A DNA stretch of 64,000 bases from Vulcanimicrobiota bacterium (GTDB taxonomy: Bacteria; Vulcanimicrobiota; Vulcanimicrobiia; Vulcanimicrobiales; Vulcanimicrobiaceae), in assembly GCA_003168375.1 (NCBI GenBank), contig PMSI01000003.1:868001-932000 (forward strand), in the 5' to 3' direction. Positions 31,962 through 39,339 of this stretch are shown piece by piece (position 1 is the first letter of the stretch; each line of letters opens with the position of its first letter). The position numbers were made by a program, and so were the translations under genes. The notes under the pieces were generated by a model. That model saw nothing but the letters and a program-made list of their open reading frames with translations. It did no database searches and had not been told where the DNA came from.

Positions 31962-34070
31962 CTAAGCGGTGGCGAGTTTCTTGCCTTGCGCCTTGGCGAC
32001 GATCTCTTCTTCGACCGACTTGGGCGCTTTCTCGTAGCGGGCGAATTCCATCGTGTAGGTGGCGCGGCCCTGGGTCGCGCTGCGAAGGTCGGTTGCGTAC
32101 CCGAACATCTCGCTCAGCGGAATGTTCGCCTTGATCACGACCGCCCCGCCGATCGCCTCGTCCTGCGATTGGATCTGGCCGCGACGGCGCATGAGGTCAC
32201 CGTTGACCGCGCCCATGTAGTCGCGCGGTGCGGTGACTTCGACGCCCATGATCGGTTCTAGGAGAATCGGTCCCGCCGCACGGTTCGCCTCTTTGAACGC
32301 CATCGAGCCGGCGATCTTGAAGGCCATTTCGCTGGAGTCGACGTCGTGGTACGAACCGTCGAACGCCGTCACCTTGAAGTCGAGGACGGGGTAGCCCGCG
32401 AGCACGCCGGACTCGGCAGCCTCGCGAATCCCTTCCTGAACCGGCTTCTGGTACTCTTTGGGGACGGCGCCGCCGACGATGGCCCACACGAAGACATAGC
32501 CCGTGTTCGGCGCGCCTGGTTCGAGGCGGATCCAGACGTCGCCGTACTGGCCCTTACCGCCGGTCTGCCGGATGAACTTGCCCTGTTTTTCGACCTTCTT
32601 CGTGATCGCTTCTTTGTACGCGACTTGCGGCTTGCCGACGTTCGCTTCGACCTTGAACTCCCGTTTGAGGCGGTCGAGGATGATCTCCAGATGGAGCTCG
32701 CCCATCCCGGCGATGATCGTCTGCTGGGTCTCCTCGTCGGTCCGCATACGGAACGTCGGGTCTTCTTGTGCGAGACGTGTCAGCGCGATGCCCAGCTTGT
32801 CCTGATCGCCCTTGGTCTTCGGCTCGATCGCCTGCGAGATCACCGGCTCCGGGAACACGATGTTCTCGAGCAGGATCGGGTGCTTCTCGTCGCAGAGCGT
32901 GTCACCGGTGCGCGTGTCGGAGAGGCCGACCGCCGCCGCGATGTCGCCCGCGCCGATCGCGTCGATATCTTCGCGATGGTTCGCATGCATCCGCAGGATA
33001 CGCCCGATGCGCTCCTTGCGGCCGCTGCGCGCGTTGTACACGTACGAGCCCTTTTCGAGCACGCCGGAGTACACGCGGAAGTACGTCAGGTTGCCGTACG
33101 GATCGGTCGCGATCTTGAACGCCAGCGCGGAGAAGTACTCCTCGTCGCGCGGCTGGCGCGTCATGTCGGAGTCGTCCTTCGGATCCTTGCCGGTGATCGG
33201 CTTCGCGTCGATCGGCGATGGCAGGAAGTCGACGACGGCGTCGAGCAGCGGCTGCACGCCCTTGTTCTTGAACGCCGATCCGCAGAGCATCGGCAGGACC
33301 TTGCCCTGGATCGTCGCCTTGCGCAGAGCCGCGTGGAGGCGGTCGACTGGGATCTCCTGGCCGTCGAAGAACATCTCGAGCAGCGCATCGTCCTGTTCGG
33401 CGATCGCCTCGATCAGCGCCCGGCGCCATTCCTGCGCGGTCGTAAACAGCTCGCCGTCGGCCGCGGTGACCGGCGTCCTGTCGGACATCGAACCGAGGTC
33501 GTCCGTGTAGATGATCTTGCTCATCGTGAACAGGTCGACGACGCCCAGGAAGTCGGCCTCGGCGCCGATCGGAACTTGGATCGGGGTCGCCGGCGCGCCG
33601 AGGCGCGCGCGGATCTGCTTGACGCAGTTGAAGAAGTCCGCGCCGACGCGGTCCATCTTGTTGACGAAGATGACGCGCGGAACGGCGTACTTGTTGGCCT
33701 GGCGCCAGACCGTTTCGGACTGCGGCTGCACCGCGGCGACGGAATCGAAGAGCGCGACCAAGCCGTCGAGGACGCGCAGCGAGCGCTCCACCTCGACGGT
33801 GAAGTCCACGTGGCCTGGCGTATCGATAATGTTGATACGCGTCTCGCGCCAGGTGCAGGCGGTCGCAGCGGACGTGATCGTGATCCCGCGCTCCTGCTCC
33901 TGAACCATCCAGTCCATGGTAGCGGCGCCGTCGTGGACCTCGCCGATCTTGTGCGTGCGGCCGGTATAGAAAAGAATCCGCTCTGTCGCCGTCGTCTTGC
34001 CGGCGTCGATGTGAGCAGCGATCCCGATATTGCGGGTTCGTTCGAGCGGATATTCGCGCTTGAGAGGCAT
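31962..34070 (-). CDS. fusA: Elongation factor G
   Basis: Translocation GTPase. The 702-aa protein has the P-loop [20 protein letters not shown], the G3 region [20 protein letters not shown] and G4 NKMDRVG. Domains II-V follow in order; [20 protein letters not shown] marks domain V. Length and order are normal. It lies 21 nt downstream of rpsG in the str-operon order. Confidence 0.98.
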
Positions 34071-34091
34071 GATGCTAAGAGAGGGTGCCCA

Positions 34092-34562
34092 TCACCAACG
34101 GTAGTGGGCGAAGGCCTTGTTGGCTTCAGCCATCTTGTGCGTGTCCTCGCGCTTTTTGATCGACGCGCCCTGGTTGTTGGAAGCGTCCATCAGCTCGTTC
34201 GCGAGCTTCTCGGTCATCGACTTGCCGGGGCGCGAGCGTGCGAACGTGATCAGCCAGCGCATCGCCATCGCTTGACGGCGGTCCGGACGGACCTCCATCG
34301 GCACCTGGTACGTCGCGCCGCCGACGCGTCGCGGACGAACCTCGACGAGCGGCATCGCGTTGCCGAGCGCCTGCGTGAAGATATCCATCGGATCGCGGCC
34401 GGTCTTGGTCGCGATCAGCTCGAGCGCATCATAGGTGATCAGCTCGGCGACAGACTTCTTGCCGCGCAGCATCACCTTATTGATGAAGCGCGCGAGCACT
34501 TTCGAGCCGAACTTGGGATCGGGCAGAATCGGTCGTTTGGGGACGGGGCCTTTACGCGGCAT
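34092..34562 (-). CDS. rpsG: 30S ribosomal protein S7
   Basis: S7 nucleates assembly of the 30S head. The 156-aa product begins [20 protein letters not shown] and contains [20 protein letters not shown] and the C-terminal [20 protein letters not shown]. Length is typical. It is 15 nt after rpsL. Confidence 0.98.
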
Positions 34563-34577
34563 GAGAAACGCGGTTCC

Positions 34578-35021
34578 TTACTTCTTCTTCGTAGCGCGCT
34601 TGGCGCCGTACTTCGAGCGGCCTTGCTTGCGGTTCGCGGCGCCCGAGGTGTCGAGCGTTCCGCGGATGATGTGATAGCGCACGCCCGGGAGATCTTTGAC
34701 GCGCCCGCCGCGGATCAGAACCACCGAGTGCTCCTGAAGATTGTGGCCGATCCCCGGGATGTAGGCCGTGACCTCTTCGCCGTTGGTCAGGCGCACGCGC
34801 GCGACCTTACGGAGCGCCGAGTTCGGCTTCTTCGGGGTGATCGTCTTCACTTGAGTGCACACGCCGCGGCGCTGCGGGTTTCCCGCGACCTCGAAGGTCC
34901 GGTTGGGCAGGTCGGGGTGGCCCGGCTTGGGTCCGGTCGAAACGACGCGGAAAGCCGGGGTCTTCACCTTTTTCTGCTGTTTCTCGCGGCCCTTACGGAC
35001 CAGCTGGGAGATCGTCGGCAC
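34578..35021 (-). CDS. rpsL: 30S ribosomal protein S12 with an internal insertion
   Basis: S12 controls decoding accuracy at the A site. The 147-aa protein begins [20 protein letters not shown] and has the core [20 protein letters not shown] (including the lysine tied to streptomycin resistance) and [20 protein letters not shown]. Between the N-terminus and RRGVCTQ lies a longer segment ([20 protein letters not shown]) than in the 124-aa E. coli protein; Bacillus has a shorter insertion at the same place. The start is GTG at 35021 with GGAG 7 nt upstream. It is the first gene of the str operon. Confidence 0.97.
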
Positions 35022-35082
35022 TCAGTACTCCGGAACGCACACGAAAGCGGCCGAACCACGGCGGTCCGGCCGGAACCTCCGA

Positions 35083-35111
35083 AGCATACCACCTCCCGTG
35101 GAGAGCGTCAA
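35083..35111 (-). promoter_or_regulatory. Sigma70-type promoter of the rpsL operon
   Basis: TTGACG (complement of 35106-35111) and TATGCT (complement of 35083-35088) are separated by 17 nt on the minus strand. The start would fall near 35076, about 55 nt before the rpsL GTG. It has the same -35 as the rplC promoter. Confidence 0.8.
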
Positions 35112-35144
35112 CGCGGAAGCAGCCCGCCCGGGGCCACCCCCTTG

Positions 35145-35166
35145 TCATCCTGAGCTTGTCGAAAGG
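35145..35166 (+). repeat. Dispersed element upstream of the rpsL promoter
   Basis: A fourth copy of the TCATCCTGAGCTTGTC element, here with one extra A near its end (GAAAGG), so 22 nt. It lies between the rpsL promoter and the end of the downstream SDR gene, in the same orientation as the other copies. Confidence 0.8.
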
Positions 35167-37452: not shown

Positions 37453-37507
37453 GAGGACGATGATCGGGTATCATGGTGGCCCACCCCTGCACGCTGAGAG
37501 GAGACCG

Positions 37508-38071
37508 ATGAGCGAGATCGCGTGGCTCGGATCGCTCGACGAGGCGCTGCGCGCGGCGCAGGCCGGCGAGAAACTCGTGTTGCTGGACGTGTTCAACCCT
37601 GGTTGAGGGGGCTGCAAAGCACTGGATACCGTGACGTATCCTGAGACCCCGGTGCGCGAGGCGATCGAACGCCTCACCGTGCCGCTTCAGTTGGACAACA
37701 CCGCCGACGCCAGCCAGGCCGTCCTGGACCGGTACCGCCACGTCTGGACGCCCGACCTGCGCATCCTCGACACGGACGGCACCGAGCTCTACCGCTGGAA
37801 CGGTTACCTGCCGCCCTACGAGTTCGCCCCGCAGCTGATCGCCGCGGTCGCCCACGCGCGGCTGCGCCGCAAAGAGTACGACGCGGCGAAGGCGCTCTAC
37901 GAGGAAGCGCTGCGCCGGTTCCCCACCGCGCTGATCGCCGCCGAAGCGCAGTACTATGTCGGCGTGAGCGCGTACCGAGCCTCACACAACGCGAACGATC
38001 TGCTGCATGCCTGGCACGAATTGGAGAAGTCCTATCCCCAAAGCGACTGGACCGTCAAGCAAAACTTCTAA
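37508..38071 (+). CDS. Probable selenoprotein: thioredoxin-fold protein with UGGC redox motif and TPR-like tail
   Basis: Read through the in-frame TGA at 37604-37606, this is one 187-residue protein. AGGAG precedes the ATG by 5-6 nt. Residues 1-32 (MSEIAWLGSLDEALRAAQAG, then KLVLLDVFNPG) give the first thioredoxin strand. Residue 33 is the TGA, followed by GGCKALDTVTYP, so the motif is Sec-Gly-Gly-Cys where relatives have a CxxC- or GC-type site. VWTPDLRILDTDGTELYRWN is the cis-Pro strand region and the last ~75 residues form TPR-like helices. A SECIS-like hairpin follows at 37624-37641. A simple nonsense mutation is the alternative, but both halves keep the frame and family pattern. Likely a thiol-disulfide or peroxide reductase. 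Confidence 0.85.
37624..37641 (+). promoter_or_regulatory. Bacterial SECIS-like hairpin in the selenoprotein gene
   Basis: GGATAC (37624-37629) pairs perfectly with GTATCC (37636-37641) around the loop CGTGAC. The loop begins 23 nt after the UGA and contains G-U near its start, as expected for a SelB-binding bacterial SECIS. An extra C-G pair closes below a T-T mismatch. Confidence 0.65.
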
Positions 38072-38615
38072 GGCCGCGAAGAAGAAATCGCCGCCGATAC
38101 GGATCCCCAAGCGCCCGACGCCCGAGGACCGCATTCCGCGCGTCGTCGAGAATCCGACGCTCAGCGATCACCTCGCAGTGATGACGCGCGCGGTGATGCA
38201 GGCCGGCATGTCGTGGGCGTTCATCGACGTGCGCTGGGACGATCATGTCGCCGGGTTCGAGAACTTCGCCGTCGACAAGGTCGCGGCATACGGCGACGCC
38301 GACGTCGACCGGCTCATGAACGCCGACGGCGTTGTCCACTCGAAGTCGAAGATCGAAGGCACGATCCGCAACGCCCGGGCCCTGATCGAGTTGGAACGCG
38401 AGCACGGCTCGATCCGCGCATACCAGACGTCGTTCGCCGACTACGACGCGATCCGAAAAGACACGAAGAAGCGCTTCGCCTTCATGGGCGATCTGAGCAC
38501 GTACTACTGGCTGTTCCGAACCGGCGCGCCCGTCCCCGACCTCGAGGAGTGGATGAAAGGCCAAGAGCGCGACCACCCCCGCATGCGCGAGATGGTCCGC
38601 CGCAACATCGCCTGA
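38007..38615 (+). CDS. DNA-3-methyladenine glycosylase I (Tag)-like protein
   Basis: 202-aa protein. After a basic, Pro/Lys-rich N-terminus (residues 18-45), the fold resembles the HhH-GPD-type alkyladenine glycosylase Tag: MTRAVMQAGMSWAFIDVRWD, FENFAVDKVAAYGDADVDRL and SKSKIEGTIRNARALIELER. Tag removes 3-methyladenine from DNA. The zinc-binding Cys/His residues of classical Tag are not evident, so it may be a divergent member. The ATG at 38007 lies within the end of the selenoprotein gene (65-nt overlap); no later in-frame start precedes the fold. Coupled translation is likely. Confidence 0.75.
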   Translation: MPGTNWRSPIPKATGPSSKTSKAAKKKSPPIRIPKRPTPEDRIPRVVENPTLSDHLAVMTRAVMQAGMSWAFIDVRWDDHVAGFENFAVDKVAAYGDADVDRLMNADGVVHSKSKIEGTIRNARALIELEREHGSIRAYQTSFADYDAIRKDTKKRFAFMGDLSTYYWLFRTGAPVPDLEEWMKGQERDHPRMREMVRRNIA

Positions 38616-38672
38616 CCCCGTAACCGGGCTGTAACCAGCGCTCGCTATCGTTAGCGTAGGCGATGGGGTGCA

Positions 38673-38705
38673 TGACGGCTCGCACCCGACGAGGTGCAGC
38701 CGTCA
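38673..38705 (+). promoter_or_regulatory. Strong hairpin in the leader of the papain-like protease operon
   Basis: TGACGGCT (38673-38680) pairs with AGCCGTCA (38698-38705), and inside them GCACC (38682-38686) pairs with GGTGC (38693-38697) around a 6-nt loop, with a single bulged C. It ends 79 nt before the operon start. There is no T-run, so it is either a Rho-type end signal for the upstream gene or a structured 5' leader. Confidence 0.5.
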
Positions 38706-38784
38706 CGGCCTTAACGTCGCTCCGGCGCACCCGAGGAATCGGATTCCGCTTCTTTCGTTGTGCCTGTTACGCCGAGAGGTGACG

Positions 38785-39339
38785 ATGATCGCAAGCTCTA
38801 CGCCCGTTTCCTTCACGGTCAGTGCGGCCGGCGCCGCGCCCGGATTTTACTTCGAAGCCCAACTTACCTCGAATCTGTGTTGGGCGGCGTCCATCCGAAT
38901 GGTCGCGAATCGCATGGGGCTGCCGGCCCGGCACCTGCAATGCGAGATGCCAACGTACTACTTCGGAGCGGACAATTGTTGTCCGCAACCCGACGAGTTC
39001 TCGGACTGCAACAAGCCGCTTGACGTCACCGCCTTTGCGGGCGTCGCGAGCGACTGGGGGATCAATGCCACGTTGCACGACGCGCGTCCGGGCACCGTTC
39101 CGATCCAGTCGGTGATCGATCAACTGACGGCCGGACGGCCCGTGCCGGTCTTCTTCGCTTGGACGGACGGCGGGCGCCAAGGCCATTTTGCCGTCGTGGG
39201 CGCGGTCAACACGGCTGGCCCAGAACCGCTCTTTCTGATGCTCGACCCCGGCCAGCCCGGCCCGGGCACCGTCACGGCGCGCGGTCTCGCGACCGCGTAC
39301 GGCTCCGGCGAATGCATCATTGCGTGGCAGTTGGGTTAG
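38785..39339 (+). CDS. Papain-like cysteine peptidase (AvrRpt2/C39-like)
   Basis: 184-aa predicted peptidase. The nucleophile is Cys31 in LTSNLCWAASIRMVANRMG, a clear CWAAS active-site helix. The histidine is in GRQGHFAVVGAV, and LFLMLDPGQP gives the Asp/Asn position. Several further cysteines (CEMPTYYFGADNCCPQPDEF) recall the papain-like family in which CWAAS and CCxP motifs co-occur. No signal peptide is seen. AGAGGTGA lies before the ATG. It is the first of three closely spaced genes (5 nt, then an ATGA overlap). Substrate unknown; precursor or effector processing is inferred. Confidence 0.72.
   Translation: MIASSTPVSFTVSAAGAAPGFYFEAQLTSNLCWAASIRMVANRMGLPARHLQCEMPTYYFGADNCCPQPDEFSDCNKPLDVTAFAGVASDWGINATLHDARPGTVPIQSVIDQLTAGRPVPVFFAWTDGGRQGHFAVVGAVNTAGPEPLFLMLDPGQPGPGTVTARGLATAYGSGECIIAWQLG

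What the first reader, a model, noticed from the sequence alone, without database searches (positions are those of the whole stretch)
37508..38071. Likely selenoprotein with a Sec-Gly-Gly-Cys redox site split by an in-frame UGA
A TGA at 37604-37606 interrupts one continuous thioredoxin-like frame. Upstream is VLLDVFNPG, downstream GGCKALDTVTYP, so the missing residue sits exactly at the redox-active position. Read through, the motif is UGGC. The frame keeps family-like structure for 154 more codons, and a SECIS-like hairpin (6-bp stem, loop CGTGAC) begins 17 nt after the UGA, within the range known for bacterial SECIS. A random nonsense mutation would not be expected to fall on the catalytic residue and be followed by such a hairpin. 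Automated annotation would call a truncated 32-aa protein and a second ORF from a false internal start.
Basis: partly seen in the sequence, partly recalled or inferred. Interest (0 to 1): 0.95.

Follow-up and report, generated by a model that had tools for sequence, protein, structure and literature searches.

The report
Thioredoxin-TPR selenoprotein with UGGC site
The "stop" codon inside this gene is almost certainly read as the rare amino acid selenocysteine: the gene encodes a small thioredoxin-like protein whose selenium atom would sit at the active site, and it belongs to a selenoprotein subfamily that the curated family library and reviews we searched do not list separately.

Summary
TGA 37604-37606 lies in one coding frame (187 aa, 37508-38071) whose read-through product has UGGC at the CxxC position of a thioredoxin fold. 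The host genome carries tRNA-Sec, SelA, SelB and a SelD that itself has an in-frame TGA. All 34 homologues compared residue by residue, from this class, other families of its phylum and other bacterial lineages, have TGA at exactly this codon. Two more distant relatives have Cys there; the one whose genome was tested lacks SelA and SelD. The hairpin 37624-37641 is kept in all 34, its wobble bases are nearly frozen although the protein does not require it, and one pair switches A-U to G-C through a synonymous Tyr change, at least twice independently. Folding energy in local context is unremarkable; comparison decides. The confident two-domain model is a DsbD-gamma-like thioredoxin fold plus a TPR-like tail, probably cytosolic. 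Most likely role: Sec-dependent thiol-disulfide reductase with a TPR docking arm. DsbD-gamma/PF13098 UxxC selenoproteins are already known; the TPR-fused subfamily has no NCBIfam model and no review entry that I found. The organism's name was not obtained.

The parts
37508..38071 (+). selenoprotein gene, 187 aa with UGA read as Sec: thioredoxin fold (residues 1-~102) + TPR-like helical tail (103-184)
37604..37606 (+). Sec UGA codon, first position of UGGC (37604-37615)
   Evidence: TGA in 34 of 34 close and mid-range homologues, Cys in two distant ones:
37613..37615 (+). resolving Cys codon (C36) of UGGC
   Evidence: invariant in alignment A2; role inferred from the thioredoxin mechanism
37624..37641 (+). 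SECIS hairpin: 6-bp stem, loop CGUGAC, 23 nt between the UGA and the loop
   Evidence: kept in 34/34; nearly frozen wobble bases; A-U to G-C double change:
37745..37756 (+). WTPD (residues 80-83), W-T-P invariant; presumed thioredoxin cis-Pro loop before strand 83-87
   Evidence: cis-Pro role inferred from the fold
37814..38068 (+). TPR-like C-terminal helices (103-120, 124-137, 144-159, 162-175)
37497..37503 (+). probable ribosome binding site AGAGGAG
   Evidence: sequence

Best explanation
The gene encodes a 187-aa selenoprotein. During translation SelB carrying Sec-tRNA(Sec) binds the hairpin 37624-37641 just downstream of the UGA, and the UGA is decoded as selenocysteine, giving a Sec-Gly-Gly-Cys active site at the start of the first active-site helix of a DsbD-gamma-like thioredoxin fold. 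The selenolate attacks a substrate disulfide (or another oxidised thiol) and Cys36 resolves the mixed selenosulfide, as in thioredoxins. The TPR-like tail most likely binds a client or partner protein. With no signal peptide or membrane segment evident, it probably works in the cytosol as a reductase or protein-repair factor, comparable in layout to Trx-TPR chaperedoxins such as CnoX. Shown: machinery, conserved UGA, conserved SECIS, predicted fold. Inferred: actual Sec insertion, reductase direction, TPR partner, physiological role. The confidence given is for 'a UGA-decoded selenoprotein with a thioredoxin-type UxxC site'; for the disulfide-reductase role it is about 0.65.
For: tRNA-Sec (76 bits, C4:548423-548512, anticodon TCA), SelB (300 bits, over cut-off), SelA next to SelB (492 bits), SelD with in-frame TGA at SSCAG-U-ASK. 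34 of 34 homologues aligned have TGA at the same codon, UGGC in the class and UIGC/ULGC in other lineages. Distant relatives in G190 (ECNGC) and G201 (ECGGC) have Cys at that column, and G190 has neither SelA nor a SelD over cut-off. Hairpin paired in 100% of cells, pair 23-36 A-U in 31 and G-C in 3 sequences, one inside the class clade and two outside it. Hairpin codons GAT, GTG, ACG invariant and TAT 29/30 in 30 class members, whereas none of 50 other conserved codons is invariant. Loop of 6 nt, G at loop position 2, spacing 23 nt: within the published bacterial SECIS model (PMC13188914). Third-position excess of changes downstream of the UGA shows that part is translated. AF2 model pLDDT 94, pTM 0.90, matching cDsbD and DsbH and, for the tail, BamD/YbgF TPRs.
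Against: No peptide or expression data. Free energy of the 18-nt hairpin alone is -6.0 kcal/mol, weaker than the published limit of -7.5, which the 48-nt context meets (-16.3); in about ten homologues another pairing is the single-sequence minimum. One TGA-bearing genome, G040, shows no SelA, no SelB over cut-off and no tRNA-Sec, though its SelD has an in-frame TGA and the assembly is in 370 contigs. Most species of the same genus lack the gene, so it is dispensable. Partner and substrate are unknown; no neighbouring gene is conserved beyond the genus.
Confidence: 0.96

Rival explanations
1. Ordinary nonsense mutation: the gene is a pseudogene, or a 32-aa peptide plus a separate 146-aa protein from an internal GTG start at 37631.
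For: That is how a standard ORF caller reads it; the gene is patchy in the genus.
Against: Same TGA codon in 34 separate genomes with up to 65% protein divergence; purifying selection downstream as well as upstream; TAA or TAG never seen at the codon.
Confidence: 0.01
2. UGA is read through as an ordinary amino acid (Trp, Gly or Cys) by a near-cognate tRNA or a changed code.
For: The frame is open under any sense reading.
Against: TGA ends several of the homologues (L031, L033, L035, L045); distant homologues have Cys there, not Trp or Gly; a SECIS-like hairpin and full Sec machinery are present.
Confidence: 0.02
3. It is a selenoprotein, but acts as an oxidase/isomerase, a peroxidase-like enzyme or a selenium/metal handling protein rather than a disulfide reductase.
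For: Substrate and redox direction are untested; neighbours give no clue.
Against: Fold and motif are closest to DsbD-gamma, DsbH and thioredoxins, which reduce disulfides.
Confidence: 0.3

Closest known systems
Sec-containing thiol:disulfide interchange protein / 'Trx-like 2' (PF13098, cd02953, UxxC; PMC13188914 Table 1, PMC2398784 Table 2)
   Same: Same domain class (PF13098 over its cut-off; cDsbD among the best solved relatives) and same UxxC motif
   Different: TPR-like tail; the representative WP_011366075.1 could not be fetched, so close kinship was not tested
VPGUxxT thioredoxin-like selenoproteins (NF041383/NF041382)
   Same: Related thioredoxin-like N-terminal domain, Sec near the same place
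   Different: Score 30 of 275 needed; UGGC with a resolving Cys instead of UxxT; shorter
CnoX/YbbN chaperedoxins (Trx + TPR; PMC6282202)
   Same: N-terminal thioredoxin domain, C-terminal TPR, reductase with an active CxxC in Caulobacter; YbbN 3qou is Foldseek rank 14
   Different: Sec instead of Cys/Ser; shorter TPR part; Trx domain closer to DsbD-gamma/DsbH; whole-chain superposition poor (rmsd 11.8)
TsoB rhodanese/DsbD fusion-like selenoprotein (NF045694)
   Same: DsbD-gamma-like domain; 35 of 35 members match weakly
   Different: 572-position model with UxxxxU; score 24 of 805 needed

Membership tests
bacterial selenoprotein (UGA-Sec) | Sec machinery in the genome (SelA, SelB, SelD, tRNA-Sec) | tested here: met
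bacterial selenoprotein (UGA-Sec) | in-frame UGA conserved in homologues and aligned with Cys in others | tested here: met
bacterial selenoprotein (UGA-Sec) | SECIS hairpin directly downstream: 3-9 nt loop, 4-16 bp stem, G in first two loop positions, 16-37 nt spacing | tested here: met
   the energy limit of -7.5 is met in 48-nt context, not by the 18-nt hairpin alone
bacterial selenoprotein (UGA-Sec) | Sec detected in the protein | not testable with these tools
   needs mass spectrometry or 75Se labelling
Thioredoxin_2 (PF13098) UxxC thiol:disulfide interchange selenoproteins | PF13098 over gathering score with UxxC | tested here: met
   33.8 bits against 27; 34 of 35 members match at E <= 0.001
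Thioredoxin_2 (PF13098) UxxC thiol:disulfide interchange selenoproteins | orthology to the published representative WP_011366075.1 | not tested
VPGUxxT Trx-like selenoproteins (NF041383) | score over curated cut-off 275 | tested here: not met
   30.4 bits
DsbD | multi-domain protein over NF001419 cut-off 330 | tested here: not met
   38.9 bits, C-terminal (gamma) domain only
CnoX/YbbN | sequence family membership | tested here: inconclusive
   no CnoX model among the hits; layout alike, YbbN at Foldseek rank 14

The most novel reading that the evidence does not exclude
A selenium-based chaperedoxin: a cytosolic DsbD-gamma-like Sec reductase fused to a client-binding TPR arm, a subfamily so far unlisted, with Sec in nearly all members seen and Cys only in remote relatives from a lineage whose tested genome lacks SelA and SelD.
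Probability: 0.3. Interest if true: 0.65.

Novelty: new member of a known kind. Interest (0 to 1): 0.5.

Why it matters
A standard ORF caller reads this gene as a truncated peptide plus a false internal ORF, so a whole redox enzyme subfamily is likely hidden by annotation in this lineage. The SECIS alignment is a clean natural experiment: a hairpin presumably read by SelB, preserved over large protein divergence with a synonymous compensating change. A (seleno)protein exception model built from the 34 sequences would correct annotation. Being predominantly Sec rather than Cys among the homologues found is unusual for a thioredoxin-fold selenoprotein, most of which have widespread Cys homologues (PMC1088965).

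Tried and rejected
Single-sequence folding as proof of SECIS: rejected, z near 0 to -1.7 in context. Rfam: no hit in the window. Naming the organism: the first genome-contig scan used a pattern with Cys at the Sec codon and found nothing; the second was a DNA pattern that I wrote two bases short (misframed), so its five loci L063-L067 are chance matches and were not used. The phyla of G180, G172 and G190 hold only 1, 3 and 4 genomes, so the Sec/Cys ratio in those lineages rests on few genomes. Plasmids hold no relative. Conserved operon partners: none beyond the genus. A three-sequence DNA alignment (A3) used a wrong strand for one row and was discarded; so was a first extraction with wrong strands. 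A guess that the lineage is Eremiobacterota (from memory) could not be tested; no paper in the library links that name with selenocysteine.

Full report
Observation. The TGA at 37604-37606 interrupts one frame running from ATG 37508 to TAA 38069-38071. Read as Sec the product is 187 aa with the motif PG-UGGC-KALDTVTYP. Standard ORF calling sees only a GTG-started 146-aa ORF. Pfam places residues 18-109 in Thioredoxin_2 (PF13098, 33.8 bits, cut-off 27) and 5-88 in Thioredoxin_7, with the UGA at the first Cys of CxxC, and finds weak TPR matches in the tail.

Machinery. The window lies in a 4.43 Mb genome in 7 contigs. That genome has tRNA-Sec (C4:548423-548512; ARAGORN anticodon TCA), SelB (C4:578778-580634, 300 bits), SelA directly beside it (C4:580654-581991, 492 bits) and SelD (C4:1443085-1444011), whose own active-site codon is TGA (SSCAG-U-ASK). 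The organism therefore almost certainly decodes UGA as Sec in at least one other gene.

Homologues. A search of 198 relatives found about 40 strong homologues, nearly all with exactly one TGA inside. For 34 of them, the window's own copy included, I extracted and compared the coding sequence: TGA is at the same codon in every case, UGGC in the class and UIGC or ULGC in G180, G117, G118 and G172. A further one, G198, also fits (UIGC with a matching hairpin). Two distant relatives, G190 (HPECNGC) and G201 (HPECGGC), carry Cys at the column; G190 has no SelA and no SelD over the cut-off. A weaker relative in G214 has TGA with a less regular hairpin. In 388 genomes the family was found in 42 at E <= 1e-30. 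It is patchy: 7 of 11 genomes of the genus lack it, including G006, a single-contig 99% complete genome with Sec machinery.

SECIS. In local context the folding energy is unremarkable, so the hairpin had to be judged by comparison. Counting the T of UGA as 1, stem 21-26/33-38 is formed in all 34 sequences; 3 pairs never vary, one is G-C/G-U, one A-U/G-U, and pair 23-36 is A-U in 31 and G-C in 3. The 23-36 change couples Asp/Gly codons (GAT/GGT) with a purely synonymous Tyr change (TAT/TAC). It occurs in L032 inside the class clade and in L060 and L062 outside it, so at least twice. Among 30 class members the codons GAT, GTG and ACG of the hairpin are invariant and TAT is 29 of 30, whereas 0 of 50 other conserved codons is invariant, although for example Asp is GAC 60% of the time in these genes. 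No other 6-bp stem in the gene is kept in all sequences; the next best is kept in 23. The sequences are related, so these counts are not independent events. Loop size (6), G at loop position 2 followed by U, and the 23-nt distance fit the published bacterial model (PMC13188914); the energy limit is met by the 48-nt context but not by the bare 18-nt hairpin (-6.0).

Coding after the UGA. Between close pairs, differences downstream concentrate at third codon positions (e.g. 15/9/40 at positions 1/2/3 over 150 codons, L025 against L028), as in translated sequence.

Structure. AlphaFold2 with the 35-sequence alignment gives pLDDT 94, pTM 0.90: a thioredoxin fold to about residue 102 with the UGGC at the start of helix 34-43, then helices 103-120, 124-137, 144-159 and 162-175. 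Solved relatives by sequence profile are a Bacteroides putative disulphide isomerase (2kuc) and DsbD-gamma for the first part, YbgF and BamD TPRs for the second. Foldseek and VIA-align agree: DsbH 2ju5 Z 13.5, rmsd 1.9 over 115; DsbD-gamma 1vrs Z 13.3, rmsd 2.0 over 109; BamD 5waq Z 13.2, rmsd 2.2 over 83 residues of the tail; Z values of helical repeats must be read with care. YbbN, a Trx-TPR chaperedoxin, is Foldseek rank 14.

Mechanism. Shown: machinery, site conservation, RNA structure conservation, predicted fold. Inferred: SelB-dependent insertion, selenolate attack with Cys36 resolving, cytosolic location (no signal peptide or membrane segment evident in the sequence), TPR tail docking partners. 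No conserved neighbour helps: MFS transporter and methyladenine glycosylase genes flank it only within the genus.

Known or new. DsbD-gamma/PF13098 proteins with UxxC are already listed as selenoproteins (PMC13188914 Table 1; PMC2398784 Table 2, 'Trx-like 2', cd02953). No entry with a TPR tail or UGGC was found in the 2026 review or in NCBIfam 20.0, where every hit of the window protein is far below its cut-off, and a text search for selenoprotein with tetratricopeptide returned nothing relevant. I therefore file it as a new member (subfamily) of a known kind, with the caveat that orthology to the published representative was not tested.

Noticed in passing
G000:C4:1443085-1444011 (L103): SelD of the host genome has an in-frame TGA at the active-site codon (SSCAG-U-ASK), a second selenoprotein gene.
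   Followed up: partly
G040 (L037, L120): Genome with a TGA-bearing homologue and TGA-bearing SelD but no SelA, SelB over cut-off or tRNA-Sec found; probably an assembly gap at the sel cluster (370 contigs).
   Followed up: partly
window 38007-38615: Methyladenine glycosylase (PF03352) ORF whose listed start codon lies inside the 3' end of the selenoprotein gene; the pair may be translationally coupled, or the true start differs.
   Followed up: no
window 38668-39339: ORF with a weak match to papain-like peptidase C70 (PF12385, 23.7 bits against 19), not conserved beside the gene elsewhere.
   Followed up: no
window 32346-35153: 935-aa open frame antisense to what look like translation genes (EF-G and ribosomal proteins), most likely a high-GC mirror ORF and not a gene.
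   Followed up: no
G006: Single-contig genome of the same genus with Sec machinery but no copy of this gene: the gene comes and goes within the genus.
   Followed up: no
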